Positions 5,099-23,376 of a stretch of DNA of 64,000 nt are shown piece after piece. Every line of letters begins with the position of its first letter. The stretch's first letter is position 1. The position numbers were made by a program, and so were the translations under genes. This stretch comes from Gemmatimonadota bacterium (GTDB lineage Bacteria > Gemmatimonadota > Gemmatimonadetes > Longimicrobiales > Gaopeijiaceae). Where the stretch lies: positions 186,001 to 250,000 of the forward strand of contig JAGWBQ010000007.1 of the NCBI GenBank assembly GCA_021295815.1. Reading direction: 5' to 3'. The notes beneath the pieces are model-generated. The model worked only from the letters and a program-made list of their open reading frames with translations, ran no database searches and was not told the origin of the DNA.

Positions 5099-7435
5099 CT
5101 ACCGGGACGGTCTGCCTGGTACTCGGAAACGTCGCGCGGTCTGATCACAGAACTCGGTCGGTTCCGTGCCCGGAATGAAAAGTTCCACGTAAGAATTTTC
5201 GGCATCGCACCACTTCGAGGCCAGCAACCCGGTCGTCCGATCCACCCTGATGGGTTGCAACCCCTCGGGCATGGGCCAGGTGCCCGGAATGTCGAGCAGG
5301 GGTGCGACGGCAGGGATGCCTTCATCCGGATCCGCAGGCCGACCCTGGTAGACGCGCTTCATGAAAGACCCCCAGATCGGCGCGGCCAGCCCTCCACCGG
5401 TCGCCTGTCTCACATCCGACCCCAATTGGAAGATGGGAACGGGATTGTCCATACCCAGCCAGACCCCGGCGAGAAGATTGGGGGTGAAGCCCATGAACCA
5501 GACGTCGGTGCCGTCGTTGGTGGTTCCGGTCTTGCCGGCTGCGGTTATCGTGGCCGGAAGTCCGGCGATGATCCGGATCCCGGTATGGGCGGTGCCAAGC
5601 GCGACCACGTCCTCGAGCATCGAGACCATCGCCCGGGCCACCAGCGAATCCAGCACCTGCGTGCGTTCGGGTTCCGGCTGCCAGAGCACGTTGCCTTCGG
5701 AATCCTCGACCTTCAGAATGGGGAAAGGACGCACCTTGCTTCCCATGTTGGGGAATGCCGAGTAGGCCTCGGCCATCTGGAGCGGGATGACCTCCGCCGC
5801 CCCGATCGTCGTGGACGGGAAGCGCTCGATCTCGGTCCGGATCCCCATACTGCGGGTGATCTGTGCGACCGTTTCGATGCCGACCTCCTCCCAGCCCAGC
5901 TTGATGGCGATCATGTTGGTGGAGGTGTAAAGTCCTTCGCGTAAGGTGATCGGCCCCTTGAACTTGCCGCCGAAGTTGGAAGGACGCCAATCCTCGCCGC
6001 TCACCTGCGGGTAGACCACCGGCGCGTCCACCACGATCCTCGAGGCGGGAATGCCGCTCGCCAAGGCCGCCGTGTATACGAACGGTTTGAAGGAGGAGCC
6101 CGCCTGTCTGCGCGCGAGCCTGACTCGGTCGAACTTGGACTGCTCGAAGTCACGTCCGCCAACCATCGCCAGAACGTGGCCGGTCTCGGGGTCGAGAGCG
6201 ACGAAAGCACCCTGCAGGTATGGCGTGGACGAGCCCGTGAAGCTCTCCACCGAGTCGAATTCGGCGTACCGGGGGTGCTGGAAGGCGGAAGAATCCGATT
6301 CGACCCGCAGCAGCCCTTCGTCCAAGGCCTCGCGCGCGGCGCGCTGCATGTCGAAGTCGAGCGTGGTGTAGACCCTCATTCCGACCCGGTAGATGTCGCT
6401 GCCGAAGCGGTCCTGAATGATGTCGCGCACCCACTCCTCGAAGTAGGGCGCCATCGAGCGCGGAGGTCCCTCGGATTCGATCTCGGGCAACGGGAAGGCC
6501 TTCCAGGTCTCGGCCTCGTCTCTCGACAGAAAGCCCTGGCGGGCCATCAGGTCGAGCACCATGTCGCGGCGGCTCTTCGCGCGTTCCGGATAGCGGAAGG
6601 GGTCGTAGTGACCGGGGCGGTTGAGGATTGCCGCGAGTAGGGCCGCCTCGGCGACGTTCACGTCGGCGATGTTCTTGCCGAAGTAGCTCCTGGACGCGTT
6701 CTGGAATCCGAAGCCTCGCCCCATGTAGATCTCGTTGAGATACGCCTCGACGATCTCGTCCTTGGAATACGCCTGTTCGAGCTCCAGAGAAATCTGAATC
6801 TCCTTGAGCTTGCGGATGTAGATCCGCTCGAATCCGATCTCGTCGAAGAGATTGCGGGCGAGCTGCTGGGTGATGGTGCTTCCTCCGCCCAGGTTCCGTC
6901 CGGTGAGCTGGCCGATGGCGGCTCTCGCGATACCCCGAAGGTCGAAGCCGCCGTGGTTGCAGAAGCGCTTGTCCTCGACGGCGATGACCGCCTGCGTGAC
7001 GTACGACCTCATCGCGTTCGCGCAGCCGGACTCCCGGGTCGTCGAGGATGCCGGGATAGCCGGGATGGTGGCGCCGGCCGACGAGGGCGGGAGGGCGCCG
7101 AGCGAAACCGGGTCGCGGGGTCGGAAGCCGATTTCGGCGAACTGGCGACCGGTGCGGTCCAGGATCTTGCTGGTCTGTTCGTGTTCGAAGGTGCGCACCT
7201 GGGCGACGGACGGGCAGCTCTCGGCCTCGCAGAGGTTGCGCCAGACTCCGTAGGCCAGCCCGAGTCCCATGCAGCCCAAGACGACGCCCGCAGCGGCCAG
7301 TTGTCGCCAGGGCAGCTTGGCGAGGAGGATGCGAATCCGCGAATCCTTCGGTCCGTCGGAGCGTTTCGCCGTAGGTTTGCGCTCGCTCTTGGAAGAGGGC
7401 CTGCCCGGTGCCGAACGGGATCTGGAGAGAGGCAT
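5099..7435 (-). CDS. mrcA: Class A penicillin-binding protein (PBP1A-type)
   Basis: 778 residues. A basic N-terminus and one membrane helix (about residues 46-66) precede a GT51 glycosyltransferase domain with EDKRFCNHGGFDLRGI (catalytic Glu) and GGGSTITQQLARNLF. The transpeptidase domain has the SxxK box SSFK near residue 448, an SxN box STN near 510 and the KTGT box near 634. It polymerises and crosslinks peptidoglycan outside the inner membrane. AGGACG sits about 7 bases before the ATG. It leads the operon with ruvX, mltG and thiE. The transglycosylase-transpeptidase order and all three penicilloyl-serine boxes are intact. Confidence 0.95.
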   Translation of the reverse strand: MPLSRSRSAPGRPSSKSERKPTAKRSDGPKDSRIRILLAKLPWRQLAAAGVVLGCMGLGLAYGVWRNLCEAESCPSVAQVRTFEHEQTSKILDRTGRQFAEIGFRPRDPVSLGALPPSSAGATIPAIPASSTTRESGCANAMRSYVTQAVIAVEDKRFCNHGGFDLRGIARAAIGQLTGRNLGGGSTITQQLARNLFDEIGFERIYIRKLKEIQISLELEQAYSKDEIVEAYLNEIYMGRGFGFQNASRSYFGKNIADVNVAEAALLAAILNRPGHYDPFRYPERAKSRRDMVLDLMARQGFLSRDEAETWKAFPLPEIESEGPPRSMAPYFEEWVRDIIQDRFGSDIYRVGMRVYTTLDFDMQRAAREALDEGLLRVESDSSAFQHPRYAEFDSVESFTGSSTPYLQGAFVALDPETGHVLAMVGGRDFEQSKFDRVRLARRQAGSSFKPFVYTAALASGIPASRIVVDAPVVYPQVSGEDWRPSNFGGKFKGPITLREGLYTSTNMIAIKLGWEEVGIETVAQITRSMGIRTEIERFPSTTIGAAEVIPLQMAEAYSAFPNMGSKVRPFPILKVEDSEGNVLWQPEPERTQVLDSLVARAMVSMLEDVVALGTAHTGIRIIAGLPATITAAGKTGTTNDGTDVWFMGFTPNLLAGVWLGMDNPVPIFQLGSDVRQATGGGLAAPIWGSFMKRVYQGRPADPDEGIPAVAPLLDIPGTWPMPEGLQPIRVDRTTGLLASKWCDAENSYVELFIPGTEPTEFCDQTARRFRVPGRPSR

Positions 7436-17857: not shown

Positions 17858-18627
17858 GCGAGCTCGACATCGCCGTATGCGTCAAGCGCGTACCGGCCAC
17901 GGACACCCGGATTCGTATTGCCGGCTCAGGTGCCGGCATAGAGACCGCCGGCGTGAAGTACATTCTGAGCCCCTACGACGAGTTCGCCATCGAAGGGGCT
18001 TTGCGCCTCCGGGACGCGGCCGGGGGTGGCAGGGTATCGCTGGTCTCCTTCGGCGCGGCAGCGGCGCAGGAGCAGTTGCGTACGGGACTGGCAATGGGCG
18101 CCGACTCCGCGACCCTGCTTGCCGGCGATTCCGATGTCGACGCGCTGGCGACTGCCCGCGTCCTCGCCGGTTGGTTCTCGTCGCTGGAAGAGCAGGGCGG
18201 CGCTTCTGGACTGATTCTGCTGGGAGTCAAGGCGGCGGATTACGACCAGCAGCAGGTGGGCCCCATGCTGGGCGTGCTCCTGGATCGACCCTGCGTGACC
18301 GGCGTCGTCGAAGTCGAGCTTCGCGACGGTGCGGTAAGATGCGAGCGTGAGACCGAGACCGGGGTGGAGGTCGTCGAGGTCGAGCTTCCGGCGGTTCTGA
18401 CCGTCACCAAGGGGGAGTACGAGCCGCGCTTCGTCTCTCTCCGCGGCATCATGGCAGCGCGGCGCAAGCCCCTCCTTACCGGTGAAGCCGAGAGCGCACC
18501 GTCCGGTGCCGTCGTCGAGCGTCTGATCGCGCCGCCCGCGCGACCGCCGGGGCGCGTGGTGGGGACCGGAAGCGAGGCGGTACCCGAACTGGTACGCCTG
18601 CTGAGGGAGGAGGCGCACGCCATATGA
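17854..18627 (+). CDS. etfB: Electron transfer flavoprotein beta subunit
   Basis: 257 residues from a GTG that overlaps the antiporter stop (GTGA). The typical N-terminus IAVCVKRVPATDTRIRI, the KYILSPYDEFAIEGALRLRD block, the AMP-site region AADYDQQQVGP and the ETFB signature VTKGEYEPRFVSLRGIMAARRKP are all present. The heterodimer passes electrons from acyl-CoA or related dehydrogenases to the quinone pool. The stop overlaps the etfA start by 4 bases. Confidence 0.95.
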   Translation: MSELDIAVCVKRVPATDTRIRIAGSGAGIETAGVKYILSPYDEFAIEGALRLRDAAGGGRVSLVSFGAAAAQEQLRTGLAMGADSATLLAGDSDVDALATARVLAGWFSSLEEQGGASGLILLGVKAADYDQQQVGPMLGVLLDRPCVTGVVEVELRDGAVRCERETETGVEVVEVELPAVLTVTKGEYEPRFVSLRGIMAARRKPLLTGEAESAPSGAVVERLIAPPARPPGRVVGTGSEAVPELVRLLREEAHAI

Positions 18628-19610
18628 GCGGATCACATGTGGCGGCCTTCGCGGAGACTCGGGACGGTACGCTGACCGGAGCGGCAGGGGAGGTAGCTTC
18701 AACCGCCGTCAGGCTGGCAGGGGAGCTCGACCGCGAAGCACGGGCGTCGGTTCTGGCCCCGGAGGGCCCCGGAGGGCTGGAGACCTTGGGAGAGTACGGC
18801 GTCGCCGAGGTGCTGCACGGCAGCCACGACGCATTTGCGAGCTACAACCCCGAGCAGTGGACCGCCGGATTCGTCGAACTGCTGAGGTTGGACGAACCAT
18901 CGGTGGTGCTGCTCCCGGCTACCGCCCTGGGCAAGGACTTGGCCCCGAGGGTGGCGGCTACCTTGGGCGTGCCGCTGATCGGCGACGTGACCCGGATCGA
19001 AGTCCGGAACGGCGCCTTGATTGCCACCAGACCGGTGTTCGCTGGCAAAGCCTTGGCCGAAGTGCGGATCGACGCACGTCCGGCCGTGATCACCCTTCGC
19101 CCGAACGTCTTCAGCGCGGAAAGGACGGGCGCCGGCCCGGCGAAGGTGATCGTGGTGACGCCCTCTCTTTCGCAGCCGAGGATGCGCACGATCGAGAGAC
19201 GGGCGGGCGGGGGTGAACTCGATGTTACCGAGGCGTCCACGGTCGTGTCGGGCGGGCGCGGGATGAAGGGGCCTGAGCACTGGCACCTGCTGGAGGCTCT
19301 GCGGGACGCCCTCGGCGGCGCGGCGACGCTGGGGGCGTCGAGGGCCGTGGTGGACGCCGGCTGGCGTCCTCACACCGAACAGGTGGGACAGACCGGCAAG
19401 ACCGTTTCCCCGAAACTGTACATCGCCGTAGGTATTTCCGGGGCGATCCAGCATCTTGCCGGGATGCGCTCGGCCTCCACCATCGTCGCCGTCAATCGCG
19501 ACCCCGACGCACCAATCTTCAAGGTCGCCGACTACGGGATTGTGGGAGACGCATTCGAAGTGCTTCCGGCGCTCTCCCGGGCTATCGCCGAGCTGAAGGC
19601 GGGCGACTAG
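18624..19610 (+). CDS. etfA: Electron transfer flavoprotein alpha subunit
   Basis: 328 residues, standard length. An N-terminal ETF domain ([20 protein letters not shown]) is followed by the FAD-binding domain with [55 protein letters not shown] and [20 protein letters not shown], all diagnostic. Partner of the preceding etfB, with which it overlaps by 4 bases. No ETF-quinone oxidoreductase or acyl-CoA dehydrogenase lies in the window. Confidence 0.96.
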
Positions 19611-19618
19611 CGGGTCCC

Positions 19619-19638
19619 CCGGCTCCAGCGCCGGTTTT
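19619..19638 (+). terminator. Hairpin terminator after etfA
   Basis: CCGGC (19619-19623), a six-base loop and GCCGG (19630-19634), followed by TTTT. A longer inverted repeat, CCGGCTCC and GGAGCCGG, spans into 19655, so the element could serve both converging transcripts. Confidence 0.5.
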
Positions 19639-19641
19639 CGA

Positions 19642-19926
19642 TCAGACGGGAGCCGGCGCCGCCCTGCCCAGCGCGCCCTTCAGCCTGCGTCGCATCTCGC
19701 CTTCGGACATGGTTAGGATGGTGCGTTCGGCGGAGTCCACGCTGTTCCAGCGGACGTCGGTGAGCCGGGCGGCTTCGTCCTCGCGGTGGAAGGCGAGGCA
19801 GTAACGACCCTTGTAGTCGGGTCCGTCCCGCCGGAGGACGCCGATCGACCAGTCGCGCCCTTCCTCGTCTCTGAAGCTGGTGATGTTCTTATGCACGATC
19901 GTTGGTTCCTGAAGTGGGGTTTCCAA
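19642..19926 (-). CDS. Small conserved-looking protein of unknown function
   Basis: 94 residues, soluble, no signal. Visible features: FRDEEGRDWSIGVLRRDGPDYKGRYCLAF, then LTDVRWNSVDSAERTILTMSEGEMRRRLK. The regular alternation and charged C-terminal helix look like a real domain, and I recall similar short proteins in Gemmatimonadota, but no function. Its start lies 38 bases inside the end of the upstream membrane wHTH gene, so it is the last gene of a three-gene unit. Confidence 0.55.
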   Translation of the reverse strand: METPLQEPTIVHKNITSFRDEEGRDWSIGVLRRDGPDYKGRYCLAFHREDEAARLTDVRWNSVDSAERTILTMSEGEMRRRLKGALGRAAPAPV

Positions 19927-20407
19927 ACGCGGGAACCATCTGGTCCCGGTGCAGGATCTCCGGAAATTCGTAGTAGATGACCCCTTCGGTACTCACCTCC
20001 GAAACGATCCTCACCCCGTCTTCCATCGCGTTGAGCGTGGTTTCGGCGGCTTTGAAGGAAATGCTGAGCTGGGATGCGACATCGGTCACGGTGAGCCGAC
20101 CGCCGGTCGCACGGGCCAGATGGAGGATGGCGGAAACGACCCGCTGCCGGATGGTCTCGCGTCGGTTGCGCAGGCTTGTGTGGCCCCACCAGAAGAGTCC
20201 CGCTCCGGCCAGCAACCAGAACACGCCGCCTCCCGTTAGAAACCCCGCCGCCAACGAGACGGCGTTGAAGGCCATTATGATTCCACCCAGGATGCGGCGC
20301 TTGAGCCCCTTGGAGGGAAGGCCTCGGAACTCCCTGCCCACCGTCCGGTCCACCGTCACCGCCCAGTCGGTCTTCTTTTCGGTTCGAGTGATTGCGGTCT
20401 TAGACAT
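19889..20407 (-). CDS. Membrane-anchored winged-helix-like protein (paralog of its neighbour)
   Basis: 172 residues: a basic N-terminus, two hydrophobic helices (about residues 40-75: ILGGIIMAFNAVSLAAGF and GGGVFWLLAGAGLFWWG), then a helical domain at about 91-155 (AILHLARATGGRLTVTDVASQLSIS, then LNAMEDGVRIVSEV and GVIYYEFPEI). That domain looks like a winged helix-turn-helix with a terminal beta-wing. The neighbour at 20417-21277 carries the same arrangement and nearly the same domain but adds zinc ribbons. The HTH faces the cytoplasm if both helices are real. Function unknown. Confidence 0.6.
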   Translation of the reverse strand: MSKTAITRTEKKTDWAVTVDRTVGREFRGLPSKGLKRRILGGIIMAFNAVSLAAGFLTGGGVFWLLAGAGLFWWGHTSLRNRRETIRQRVVSAILHLARATGGRLTVTDVASQLSISFKAAETTLNAMEDGVRIVSEVSTEGVIYYEFPEILHRDQMVPAFGNPTSGTNDRA

Positions 20408-20416
20408 GGGATTGGC

Positions 20417-21277
20417 TCATGGGCGGTCGATGTCGAGATCCAGCCTCGCAGGCTCCGGCTCCAGGCCGGGTACGGGAGTCAGATCGGCTCCGTGGACGAT
20501 CTCCGAGAACTCGTAATATACGATACCGGCCGGACTGATCCGCGAATGGACTCTAATGCCGTCCTCCATGGTCGCGAGCAGGGCTTCGGCCTCCGCGACC
20601 GAGCAATTGAGTTGGGCCGCCATGTCGGTCACCGTGACCTTGCCGCCGACGAGACGGGCGAGCCGGAGTATCTTGGATTCCGTCCTGTTGCGCACGGCGC
20701 GCTTGCGAGCCTCCAGCCTGTTCTTGCCCCACTGGTAGAGCCCCATGCCGCCGGTCCCGGAGAGCAGGGCGAACACCAGACCGGGGGGTTCCTGTTCCAT
20801 GAAGGCCGCGAATATGAGGAGAGGCGTCATCGCCATCATCGAGCCCCCGACCACGCGCCGCACCAGACCGGTGGAAGGCAGGTCGCGTCCGTCCATTCCC
20901 GCTGCGAGGACCGGGGCGCCCGCCTTGGCGACGGTTCCGCATTGGGAGCAGATGACGTGGGTTCTCCGCAGTCCCCGGTAGACGAGGCCGCCGAGTCCGA
21001 AGGTGAAGAAAGATGCGGCAATCAGCCCGCCCAAGCGCCGGGGATCGCGGAAATAAGGCCGAAACTCCCGCAGTCCGCAGTTCCTGCAGACGCTGCCCCG
21101 ACCCGGAACGAAATGCACGTCCGGCGCTGCGTGCTCGACGAGATCCGGGGGCGGAGGTTCGGCGGCGCGGTCGTCTTCACTAAAACCGTCGTCGGGCTGC
21201 GCGCGGACGAAACTCCCGCACATCGGACATCGGTCGTGGTCGGGTTCGACCGAGGCATGGCAGGTGTGGCATCGCAT
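20417..21277 (-). CDS. Zinc-ribbon, LITAF-like, membrane-anchored winged-helix-like protein
   Basis: 286 residues from the ATG at 21277, preferred over an upstream frame opening at 21376 because it puts a zinc ribbon (CHTCHA..CPMCGS, two CxxC pairs) at the N-terminus. Next comes CRNCG, a hydrophobic segment (GGLIAASFFTFGLGGLVY) and HVICSQCG: a CxxC-hydrophobic-HxxCxxC pattern that resembles LITAF domains. Two more hydrophobic helices follow (SMMAMTPLLIFAAF and GLVFALLSGTGGMG), then a winged-helix-like domain at about 199-263 (TVTDMAAQLNCSVAEAEALL, MEDGIRVHSRISPAGIVYYEF) shared with the gene at 19889-20407. Nine bases separate the two. Role unknown; a membrane-bound DNA- or protein-binding sensor is inferred. 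Confidence 0.6.
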   Translation of the reverse strand: MRCHTCHASVEPDHDRCPMCGSFVRAQPDDGFSEDDRAAEPPPPDLVEHAAPDVHFVPGRGSVCRNCGLREFRPYFRDPRRLGGLIAASFFTFGLGGLVYRGLRRTHVICSQCGTVAKAGAPVLAAGMDGRDLPSTGLVRRVVGGSMMAMTPLLIFAAFMEQEPPGLVFALLSGTGGMGLYQWGKNRLEARKRAVRNRTESKILRLARLVGGKVTVTDMAAQLNCSVAEAEALLATMEDGIRVHSRISPAGIVYYEFSEIVHGADLTPVPGLEPEPARLDLDIDRP

Positions 21278-21406
21278 AGGTGCAAATACGATCAGGGGTC
21301 GCTTGCGGTTCCTATGCGCGTCCCGGAAACGATCTGAGGGTGTCGGGTTACAGGCGAAGCAGTCGATCCATCCCACCGTTCGCTAACACCCTCAATAAGG
21401 ATCTGC

Positions 21407-22129
21407 ATGTCGGATCTCCCAACGGCACACACGCTCCAGGCGGCCCGGCTCGCTCCTCTCTTCGGTTTCTTCGTTCTGCTGACCGGAGCGGCTCCGGCCC
21501 TTGCGGCCCAGACCATCCCGTCCCCGTACACCTTCCTCGAGCGCAGACAGGAATCGGGACCGTTCGCCGGGTACATGTGGGCGAACTCGGGACGCTTCGG
21601 ATACGGCCCGAAGGGCGGCGTCCACGCGGGAGGCCGCTGGGGCTTCGAGCTGGGCGGCCCGGCGTCGCTCGAAGGTGTGGCCGGACTCCTGATGGGCGAG
21701 CGCGACGTGATCGACCCCGGCCGCGACGAGGGTGACCGCGTCATCGGACAGGCGCCCGTGCTCATTTCCACCGTCGACGCCCGACTGAAGTTCTCCCTCG
21801 TCGGACGGCGGCACTGGCGCGGACTCAGTCCGTTCCTGGTTTTCGGCGGAGGTGCGGCGATCGATCTGGCGGGCGCGGCCGCGATCGACGAGAGCCTGCT
21901 CGCAGCCGACCGTTTCGATTTCGGCACGGGATTTTTCGGCACGGTGGGAGCCGGCACCCGCGTATTTCTAACCGAGAGCGTCGCTTTCAGGATCGACGGC
22001 GTCCTTTCCCTGTGGAAGCTCGACACGCCGCCCGGCTTCAGCGATCCCGAGAGGGGGTTCGAGGCGGTCGAGGAGGACGAGTGGAGCGAAGGGGTCACGC
22101 TCTCCCTGTCGTTCATGTATCGCTGGTGA
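21407..22129 (+). CDS. Predicted outer-membrane beta-barrel protein
   Basis: 240 residues. A clear signal peptide (FGFFVLLTGAAPALAAQ, cleavage after ALA) is followed by paired glycine/aromatic strands (GRWGFELGGPASLEGVAGLLMG, FLVFGGGAAIDLAGA, FDFGTGFFGTVGAGTRVFL) and a C-terminal LSFMYRW strand that ends in an aromatic residue, the usual BamA recognition signal. It belongs to the broad OmpA/OmpW-like barrel class with no specific family visible. Its stop overlaps the moeA GTG start. Confidence 0.65.
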   Translation: MSDLPTAHTLQAARLAPLFGFFVLLTGAAPALAAQTIPSPYTFLERRQESGPFAGYMWANSGRFGYGPKGGVHAGGRWGFELGGPASLEGVAGLLMGERDVIDPGRDEGDRVIGQAPVLISTVDARLKFSLVGRRHWRGLSPFLVFGGGAAIDLAGAAAIDESLLAADRFDFGTGFFGTVGAGTRVFLTESVAFRIDGVLSLWKLDTPPGFSDPERGFEAVEEDEWSEGVTLSLSFMYRW

Positions 22130-23376
22130 AGGCCGACTGGCTCTCGTTCGACGAGGCCCTGGAGCGAGTTCTGAACGGAGCTTCGGTCCTTGAGACGGTC
22201 GAAAGCGGGATCGACTCCGCACTGGGAAGGGTTCTCGCGGAGCCGTTAAGCGCACGTGCGACCATCCCCGCTTCCGCAAACTCGGCGATGGACGGCTACG
22301 CCGCTCGGTCCGATAGCGTGCTCGGCGCGACCCCTGAGAACCCGGCGCGGCTGGAGGTGAAGGGTCGGATCGCAGCCGGGATGAGCGCGGCCGGCGTGCG
22401 GGTGGGAGCGGGCGAGGCCGTGGCGATCATGACTGGAGCTCCCGTGCCCGAAGGCGCGGACTCGGTGATCCGGGTCGAACACACCTCCGGGTGGAGGCAG
22501 GAAGGGGAAGTGGTGTCGGTGACCGCCGGGAGCGACGCCGGACGCAACATTCGGCTCGCCGGAGGAGACGCCCGCGCCGGAGAGACGGTCCTGTCGGCGG
22601 GAACGGTCGTGACGCCGGGGGCCGTCGCGGTCGCGACCGCATTCGGGCACGACTCCTTGAAGGTCGTGCGCGCTCCGCATGTGCGGGTCCTGGTGACAGG
22701 CGACGAACTCGCTCCGAACGAGCGTTACCGGGAGGTTATCGAGGGTATCGCGGTTCCCGATTCCAACGGTCCCATGCTGGTCGCACAGGCTCGAAGCTCG
22801 GGTGCCGCGGCGGAGGGACACGCTCTGGTCGGCGACGACCCGGACGAACTCCGACGGGTGATCGACGCGGCGCGCTGCGCGGACGCGCTGGTCGTCTCCG
22901 GGGGAGCCTCCATGGGGGACCGCGATCTGGTGAAGGGCGTCCTCGGCGAATTCGGCTTCGAGCTCGACTTCTGGCGGGTGCGGATGCGCCCGGGAAGCCC
23001 GGTGGGATTCGGCTTCCTCGACGATCTTCCGGTCTTTTCGCTACCCGGCAACCCGGCTTCGGCCTTCGTGACCTTCGAGACCCTCGTGCGTCCCTTTATT
23101 CGAGGGCTCGCCGGGTTCGACCCTCCCGTGCCTTTCAGAATAAGAGCGGTGGCCGGCGAGGAGCTCGGCTCTACTGCGCGGATGACCGTTTTCCAGCGTG
23201 TGCGTCTGAACGGGGAGGAGCCGGTCGCGACGCTGTCGGGCCGGCAGGGATCCGGGCTGGTGCGCTCCCTGGGATCGGCAGACGGACTCGCGGTCTTGCC
23301 CGAGGGCGTGAAGGAGGTGCCGTGTGGCGAGCGGGTCGAGGTGATCGCGACCGGATGCGGCATGTACGGTCTGTGA
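22126..23376 (+). CDS. moeA: Molybdopterin molybdenumtransferase MoeA
   Basis: 416 residues from the GTG at 22126 (GTGA overlap with the barrel gene); an ATG at 22012 would run inside that gene. Domains in order: MoeA N-terminal (SFDEALERVL, IPASANSAMDGYA), the beta-barrel part (AGMSAAGVRVGAGEAVAIMTGAPVPEGAD) and the MoCF-fold domain (VLVTGDELAP, SNGPMLVA, VVSGGASMGDRDLVK), then FSLPGNPASAFVTFE and a C-terminal domain IV. MoeA inserts molybdenum into adenylylated molybdopterin. It overlaps the downstream M23 gene by 4 bases. Confidence 0.95.
   Translation: MKADWLSFDEALERVLNGASVLETVESGIDSALGRVLAEPLSARATIPASANSAMDGYAARSDSVLGATPENPARLEVKGRIAAGMSAAGVRVGAGEAVAIMTGAPVPEGADSVIRVEHTSGWRQEGEVVSVTAGSDAGRNIRLAGGDARAGETVLSAGTVVTPGAVAVATAFGHDSLKVVRAPHVRVLVTGDELAPNERYREVIEGIAVPDSNGPMLVAQARSSGAAAEGHALVGDDPDELRRVIDAARCADALVVSGGASMGDRDLVKGVLGEFGFELDFWRVRMRPGSPVGFGFLDDLPVFSLPGNPASAFVTFETLVRPFIRGLAGFDPPVPFRIRAVAGEELGSTARMTVFQRVRLNGEEPVATLSGRQGSGLVRSLGSADGLAVLPEGVKEVPCGERVEVIATGCGMYGL

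What the first reader, a model, noticed from the sequence alone, without database searches (positions are those of the whole stretch)
19642..21277. Three-gene unit with two paralogous membrane-anchored winged-helix-like proteins, one bearing LITAF-like zinc ribbons
The 286- and 172-residue proteins share the order two membrane helices then a winged-helix-like domain with near-identical ends (MEDGIRVHSRISPAGIVYYEF and MEDGVRIVSEVSTEGVIYYEF). Only the first adds a zinc ribbon and a CxxC-hydrophobic-HxxCxxC segment like the LITAF membrane-inserting ribbon. A small soluble protein completes the unit. The layout suggests duplication, with gain or loss of a sensor, and a membrane-bound regulator or scaffold. 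I know no named system with this make-up.
Basis: partly seen in the sequence, partly recalled or inferred. Interest (0 to 1): 0.6.

Follow-up and report, generated by a model that had tools for sequence, protein, structure and literature searches.

The report
Stress-promoter-linked membrane zinc-ribbon winged-helix protein
The three genes encode a little-known inner-membrane protein with zinc ribbons and a winged-helix domain, its stripped-down tandem copy and a small soluble neighbour, and the DNA in front of the main gene suggests it belongs to a bacterial cell-envelope stress response that also controls the membrane-repair protein PspA.

Summary
A (286 aa) has an N-terminal zinc ribbon, a second ribbon split by a hydrophobic hairpin, two membrane helices and a winged helix. 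B (172 aa) is a tandem copy of A's second half that lost the ribbons (sister to A, support 97/97), and so far is known only in this genome. C (94 aa ORF, probably 84 aa) is a separate conserved family. A+C, not the trio, is conserved. "LITAF-like" describes the layout only: Pfam and profile-profile tests fail.

An ECF-sigma-type element, GAANC-N16/17-CGTA, precedes A in 74 of 89 unique upstream regions (0.34% when shuffled). Its common form, TGAATCYT-N14/15-CGTA, has 71 sites in 58 genomes against 4 for the reversed control. The sites front A, CesT/Tir-PspA operons, toastrack, Band-7, PadR and Yip1 genes, and an ECF sigma/anti-sigma pair. In the window's genome, GGAAC-N16/17-CGTA-N9-ATG fits four genes (control 0): A, a TM2-winged-helix protein and two envelope genes.

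Best reading: A is a stress-induced, cytosol-facing membrane adaptor of a PSP/sigma-W-like regulon, analogous to Bacillus YdjG. The acidic winged helix argues against DNA binding. The regulon link is well supported by sequence; the adaptor role is inferred.

The parts
20417..21277 (-). Gene A, 286 aa: zinc ribbon (C3/C6/C17/C20); second zinc ribbon split by a hydrophobic helical hairpin (C64/C67 ... C110/C113); two membrane helices (about 140-183); acidic winged helix (about 200-262) ending YYEFSE
   Evidence: Homologues in 37 of 58 relatives and across Gemmatimonadota.
19889..20407 (-). Gene B, 172 aa: tandem copy of A's second half (two membrane helices plus winged helix), ribbons lost
   Evidence: 45% identity to A, E about 1e-37; sister to A 97/97 in the maximum-likelihood tree.
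19642..19926 (-). Gene C, small soluble protein (94-aa ORF from TTG; likely 84 aa from the GTG at 19896); predicted four-stranded sheet plus two helices
   Evidence: Homologues in 47 of 58 relatives; AlphaFold2 pLDDT 88; no Pfam family over its cut-off in the scans run and no PDB fold match.
21287..21312 (-). Putative ECF-sigma promoter of A: GGAACCGCAAGCGACCCCTGATCGTA (GGAAC-N17-CGTA); CGTA ends 9 nt before the ATG, so possibly a leaderless mRNA
   Evidence: GGAAC-N16/17-CGTA-N9-ATG has 4 matches in the whole genome, control 0. The orthologous position carries GAANC-N16/17-CGTA in 74 of 89 regions.

Best explanation
Gene A encodes an inner-membrane protein made under an ECF-sigma-type envelope-stress promoter that it shares with phage-shock (PspA) genes in its relatives. 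Its two membrane helices hold both zinc ribbons and the winged helix on the cytosolic face. The second ribbon carries a hydrophobic hairpin that probably dips into the inner leaflet. I propose that the ribbons form a membrane-surface platform and that the acidic winged helix binds protein partners, most likely PSP components (PspA, CesT/Tir, Band-7 or toastrack proteins) or an identical subunit. In this way A would recruit or organise the stress machinery at damaged membrane, as YdjG/YdjH do for PspA/YdjI in Bacillus subtilis. B is a ribbonless paralogue that could pair with A or dilute it. C is a conserved neighbour whose role in this is uncertain. Shown by computation: architecture, duplication, promoter conservation and its co-occurrence with PSP genes. 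Inferred: topology, stress induction, partner binding, recruitment.
For: Promoter: GAANC-N16/17-CGTA in 74 of 89 unique A upstream regions vs 0.34% shuffled, with a near-fixed spacer of 14-15 nt between the extended boxes. TGAATCYT-N14/15-CGTA: 71 sites vs 4 control sites. Other genes behind the same element: CesT/Tir-PspA dyads (PspA_IM30 E about 1e-46), toastrack DUF4097 twice, Band_7, PadR, Yip1, a GrpE-like gene, and an ECF sigma factor followed by a zf-HC2 anti-sigma; the sigma's orthologue in another genus also has TGAATCCC-N15-CGTA. The pspA operon itself has GAAWC-N16/17-CGTA in 19 of 28 genomes vs 0.14% shuffled. Own genome: four genes fit the promoter-to-ATG pattern, control 0; one is A and another is a TM2 protein carrying the same winged helix, E 3e-6. 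Adaptor rather than DNA binder: the winged helix has mean net charge -3.5 in 95 homologues; sequence and fold neighbours include ESCRT-II SNF8 and COP9/proteasome-lid subunits, though weak. Analogy: sigma-W controls pspA-ydjGHI (PMC3498285); YdjG/H are needed to recruit PspA and YdjI (PMC8581546); YdjG has two zinc ribbons and a TM segment (PMC11237479).
Against: No experiment exists. The sigma factor that reads the promoter was not identified in A's own taxonomic family: only 2 of the 31 sigma genes examined carry the element, both in a sister family. In the window's genome neither TGAAHC-N16/17-CGTA nor GGAACC-N15/16-CGTA is enriched on its own (5 vs 4 and 8 vs 13 control sites); only the N9-ATG form is. 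No such element was seen upstream of the window genome's own pspA. Several regulon targets occur in one genome each. A and pspA were not neighbours in the loci read. Charge alone does not exclude DNA binding.
Confidence: 0.5

Rival explanations
1. A and B are membrane-tethered transcription regulators: the ribbons sense zinc, redox state or membrane state and the winged helix binds DNA near the membrane.
For: Winged-helix fold; weak IclR-type HTH hits in 8 of 20 members; Foldseek neighbours include MarR, CadC and ArsR regulators at E of about 0.06-0.2; ZnR-HTH proteins (DUF2089) occur in PSP-like contexts (PMC11237479).
Against: The winged helix is acidic in the family (mean -3.5, none above 0), and the recognition-helix start is P-A-A-E rather than polar or basic. 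The only conserved upstream element is an ECF-type promoter with asymmetric boxes, not a palindrome.
Confidence: 0.22
2. A-C is a housekeeping pair, for example in membrane-protein quality control or ribosome contact, and the stress promoter only boosts its level.
For: C lies downstream of A on the same strand in 70 of 70 loci with C in view, sometimes 42-68 nt apart, including in very diverged homologues; C is present in 47 of 58 relatives.
Against: The two genes do not co-occur beyond chance: C is present in 28 of 37 genomes with A and 19 of 21 without it. Many loci have other genes between them, including one on the opposite strand. Shared ancestral gene order explains the linkage.
Confidence: 0.15
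3. A is a true bacterial member of the LITAF/SIMPLE family that anchors to membranes like its eukaryotic namesake.
For: Cysteine pairs about 46 residues apart around a hydrophobic stretch (49 in human LITAF, PMC5142333), an H at the second knuckle, and a broken helix in the model.
Against: PF10601 best E 0.015, below cut-off in every genome searched, while human LITAF scores 5e-25; hhalign no better than shuffled controls.
Confidence: 0.05

Closest known systems
Bacillus subtilis YdjG/YdjH of the sigma-W operon pspA-ydjGHI (PMC8581546, PMC3498285, PMC11237479)
   Same: YdjG is a membrane protein with two zinc ribbons under an ECF sigma factor in a PspA regulon; the pair is needed to recruit PspA and an SPFH protein to the membrane.
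   Different: YdjG has a YpeB-related domain instead of a winged helix and sits in one operon with pspA; A is a separate transcription unit.
DUF2089 proteins (ZnR + HTH + SHOCT-like) of toastrack/PSP-like contexts (PMC11237479)
   Same: Zinc ribbon plus HTH in an envelope-stress setting.
   Different: As described there, a SHOCT-like domain rather than A's own two membrane helices and split second ribbon; DUF2089 was not among the Pfam matches listed for A.
LITAF/SIMPLE domain (PF10601; PMC5142333)
   Same: Zinc ribbon interrupted by a hydrophobic, membrane-inserting segment.
   Different: No detectable sequence or profile homology; A adds another ribbon, two membrane helices and a winged helix.
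ESCRT-II winged helices (SNF8/Vps22; PMC11188069)
   Same: Winged-helix domain used for protein contacts at membranes; weak profile match (E 0.013) and a 1.9 A Foldseek superposition over 59 columns (E 0.16).
   Different: No significant homology shown; a generic winged-helix resemblance is enough to explain it.

Membership tests
zf-LITAF-like (PF10601) | Profile score above the curated cut-off | tested here: not met
   Best member E 0.015; 0 of 58 genomes over the 23.8-bit cut-off; human LITAF control 87.9 bits.
zf-LITAF-like (PF10601) | Two CxxC knuckles around a hydrophobic in-plane helix, forming one zinc site | tested here: inconclusive
   Spacing and broken helix agree, but zinc binding and membrane insertion are not testable here, and hhalign gives no homology.
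Winged-helix (wHTH) superfamily | Three helices plus a two-stranded wing in the predicted structure | tested here: met
   End of the long helix up to 209, helices 216-223 and 227-237, strands 243-247 and 253-257, pLDDT above 90; many winged-helix PDB neighbours, all at weak E-values.
DNA-binding wHTH regulators | Basic or polar recognition helix / DNA-binding surface | tested here: not met
   Net charge -3.5 on average, range -8 to 0, in 95 homologues; no direct DNA-binding test possible.
ECF-sigma-dependent regulon | Two-box promoter (GAANC, 16-17 nt, CGTA) conserved upstream | tested here: met
   74 of 89 unique upstream regions vs 0.34% shuffled; 71 vs 4 genome-wide sites.
ECF-sigma-dependent regulon | Autoregulated sigma/anti-sigma gene pair with the same promoter | tested here: inconclusive
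   Found in two genera of a sister family (L259, L263); not found among the sigma genes examined in the window's family.
Phage-shock (PSP) stress system | Regulatory or genomic link to pspA and its known partners | tested here: met
   Same promoter in front of CesT/Tir-PspA, toastrack, Band-7, PadR and Yip1 genes in relatives; not seen at the window genome's own pspA.
Phage-shock (PSP) stress system | Physical or functional interaction with PspA | not testable with these tools
   Needs experiment.
YdjG family | Two ZnRs followed by a YpeB-related NTF2-like domain | not tested
   No YdjG sequence was compared; A carries a winged helix in that place.

The most novel reading that the evidence does not exclude
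A and its TM2-winged-helix relative are bacterial membrane adaptors that recruit PspA (the ESCRT-III homologue) through a winged helix used for protein contacts, a bacterial counterpart of how ESCRT-II winged helices engage ESCRT-III, switched on by an ECF sigma factor.
Probability: 0.12. Interest if true: 0.88.

Novelty: new variant of a known kind. Interest (0 to 1): 0.6.

Why it matters
PspA is the bacterial relative of ESCRT-III, and what brings it to the membrane outside the model species is mostly unknown. This family is widespread in Gemmatimonadota, has no name in the libraries searched, and carries an unusually specific promoter signature. The signature connects it to PspA, its known partners and an ECF sigma/anti-sigma pair. 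That turns an unnamed hypothetical protein into a testable component of an envelope-stress regulon in a phylum with almost no genetics, and singles out the YxFPE winged helix (also on TM2 proteins) as a candidate membrane-stress adaptor domain.

Tried and rejected
LITAF homology: rejected (Pfam cut-off, hhalign with shuffled controls). The LITAF and CDIP1 sequences used as controls were written from memory and validated only by their strong PF10601 scores.

B as a member of the older ribbonless branch: rejected. That branch (19 loci) is a separate clade at 100/99, and B nests with A.

Trio as a conserved unit: rejected; B is specific to this genome in the sample.

Functional coupling of A and C by co-occurrence: not supported (28/37 vs 19/21).

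Fold of C by Foldseek and PDB profile: nothing.

ECF promoter in front of the ribbonless branch or of C itself: none found.

TGAATC-type sites in the window's own genome: not enriched. GGAACC-N15/16-CGTA alone: not enriched (8 vs 13 control); only with the N9-ATG constraint (4 vs 0). I added that constraint after seeing four such spacings, so it is partly post hoc; the support is that the orthologous position carries the element in relatives.

My first regex scan for sigma genes failed and was redone with phmmer.

Full report
WHAT IS THERE. The three minus-strand ORFs are as described. A ends 9 nt before B begins, and C most likely starts at a GTG (19896) that overlaps B's stop codon, so an A-B-C operon is likely. 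A's eight cysteines are invariant among the 20 aligned homologues. AlphaFold2 on that alignment (mean pLDDT 78) gives an N-terminal ribbon, a second ribbon whose two knuckles are separated by two short hydrophobic helices, two membrane helices, a long connecting helix and a confident winged helix. Charge placement (RR before the first membrane helix, RKR after the second, an acidic short loop between) suggests that everything except that loop is cytosolic; this is inference.

FAMILY. A has homologues in 37 of 58 relatives, and 132 of 395 genomes of the phylum match the profile, though many of the weaker matches cover only the membrane-plus-winged-helix half. In a public genome collection, hits are nearly all Gemmatimonadota. 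The few labelled Gammaproteobacteria are near-identical to a BD2-11-clade record and may be mislabelled bins. Proteins with only the winged helix or a looser version occur in Myxococcales and Spirochaetes.

B IS A RIBBONLESS DUPLICATE OF A. They are 45% identical over 145 residues and sisters at 97/97. All other long homologues aligned have the ribbons, so B lost them. An older ribbonless branch (two membrane helices plus winged helix, about 150 aa) forms a separate clade (100/99). In 18 of 20 loci a TFIIB-type zinc-ribbon gene (PF13453, E 1e-16) sits beside it, so a zinc ribbon appears in trans there and in cis in A.

C. C lies downstream of A on the same strand in all 70 loci where it is in view (loci partly redundant), but genes often intervene and the two genes do not co-occur beyond chance (28/37 vs 19/21). 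I read this as conserved gene order rather than demonstrated partnership. C is predicted as a four-stranded sheet plus two helices with no PDB neighbour.

LITAF. The layout resembles LITAF (knuckles 46 vs 49 residues apart; PMC5142333), but no member passes the Pfam cut-off and profile-profile alignment finds only the CPxC columns, equal to a cysteine-fixed shuffle. It may work like a LITAF ribbon; it is not a member on this evidence.

THE PROMOTER. Aligning upstream DNA of A from 14 genomes showed one conserved element, TGAATCTT-N14-CGTA. In 1.5 Mb of fetched loci nearly every match lay just upstream of an A gene, with the spacer fixed at 14 (76) or 15 (5). In ECF terms this is TGAATC-N16/17-CGTA, close to the sigma-W consensus TGAAAC-N16-CGTA (the latter from my own knowledge, not confirmed in the papers read). 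Over 89 unique A upstream regions, GAANC-N16/17-CGTA occurs in 74, shuffled rate 0.34%. Across 58 genomes TGAATCYT-N14/15-CGTA has 71 sites against 4 for the reversed pattern.

THE REGULON. Sites not in front of A precede, among others: CesT/Tir-PspA dyads in two genomes, two toastrack DUF4097 proteins, a Band-7 protein, a PadR regulator, a Yip1 protein, a GrpE-like gene, several small membrane proteins (one kind in four genomes), TolC-like and RND-adaptor-like genes, envelope peptidases, and an ECF sigma factor followed directly by a zf-HC2 anti-sigma. (Pfam was run for the sigma, anti-sigma, Band-7, toastrack, PadR, CesT/Tir, Yip1 and PspA proteins; GrpE, TolC, RND and peptidase labels are from reading the sequence.) The sigma's orthologue in another genus also carries the element. 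CesT/Tir, Band-7, toastrack and PadR with Yip1-like proteins are the partners reported for PSP systems (PMC11237479). The CesT-pspA operon itself carries GAAWC-N16/17-CGTA in 19 of 28 genomes (0.14% shuffled), mostly GAAAC, so the A-type and pspA-type promoters may be read by the same or by sister sigma factors.

THE WINDOW. A here lacks the TGAATC form but has GGAACC-N16-CGTA (21287-21312, minus), with CGTA 9 nt before the ATG. Genome-wide, GGAAC-N16/17-CGTA-N9-ATG fits four genes, control 0: A, a TM2 protein with the same winged helix, a glycosyltransferase-DUF3108 fusion and a secreted protein. The N9-ATG constraint was added after inspection, so it is weaker than the cross-genome result, and no such element was seen at this genome's own pspA.

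MECHANISM. The winged helix is acidic (mean -3.5) and its neighbours include winged helices used for protein contacts (SNF8, COP9/proteasome lid), all at weak E-values. With the regulon, I favour a membrane-surface adaptor in a PSP/sigma-W-like response, parallel to YdjG/YdjH, which are needed to bring PspA and YdjI to the membrane (PMC8581546) and lie in a sigma-W operon (PMC3498285). Shown: architecture, duplication, promoter conservation, shared promoter with PSP genes. Inferred: stress induction, topology, partners.

NOVELTY. In the libraries and papers searched I found no name for A, C or the regulon. The setting (ECF plus PSP) is known; this component and its winged-helix/TM2 relatives are a new variant.

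Noticed in passing
L089-L108 (e.g. L092:5819-6346 and 6343-6999): A separate ribbonless membrane winged-helix family (about 150 aa) has a TFIIB-type zinc-ribbon gene beside it in 18 of 20 loci, with ends overlapping by about 4 nt where measured; no ECF element in front of it. It may be a second two-gene membrane unit.
   Followed up: partly
L326 (G000:C7:45312), 188 aa: TM2-domain protein ending in the same winged helix (YRFPDL) with the same promoter-to-ATG layout as A.
   Followed up: partly
L222, L223, L234, L248: A small conserved membrane protein (MIGTLLTFFAVG...LSPADREWLEGGK, about 79 aa) sits behind the TGAATCYT-N14/15-CGTA element in four genomes; weak PspB-like score only.
   Followed up: partly
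L259 (G035:C7) and L263 (G043:C124): ECF sigma factor gene carrying the same element upstream, in L259 followed directly by a zf-HC2 anti-sigma with a membrane helix: candidate regulator of the regulon.
   Followed up: partly
L049:9667-9897 and four other loci: A second small protein family (MRPFVDDQGREWDVVVGRESWGSLYALFVP...) beside C starts like C and may be its distant paralogue.
   Followed up: no
L175, L176, L178, L185: Contigs labelled Gammaproteobacteria carry A-C pairs near-identical to a BD2-11-clade contig (L181); the labels may be binning errors.
   Followed up: no
window 18624-23376: The order etfA - (C,B,A) - beta-barrel-like gene - moeA is a rearranged version of a block conserved in relatives (etfA, M23, moeA, barrel, SH3, protease, A ... 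C, dacB, fur, acs).
   Followed up: partly
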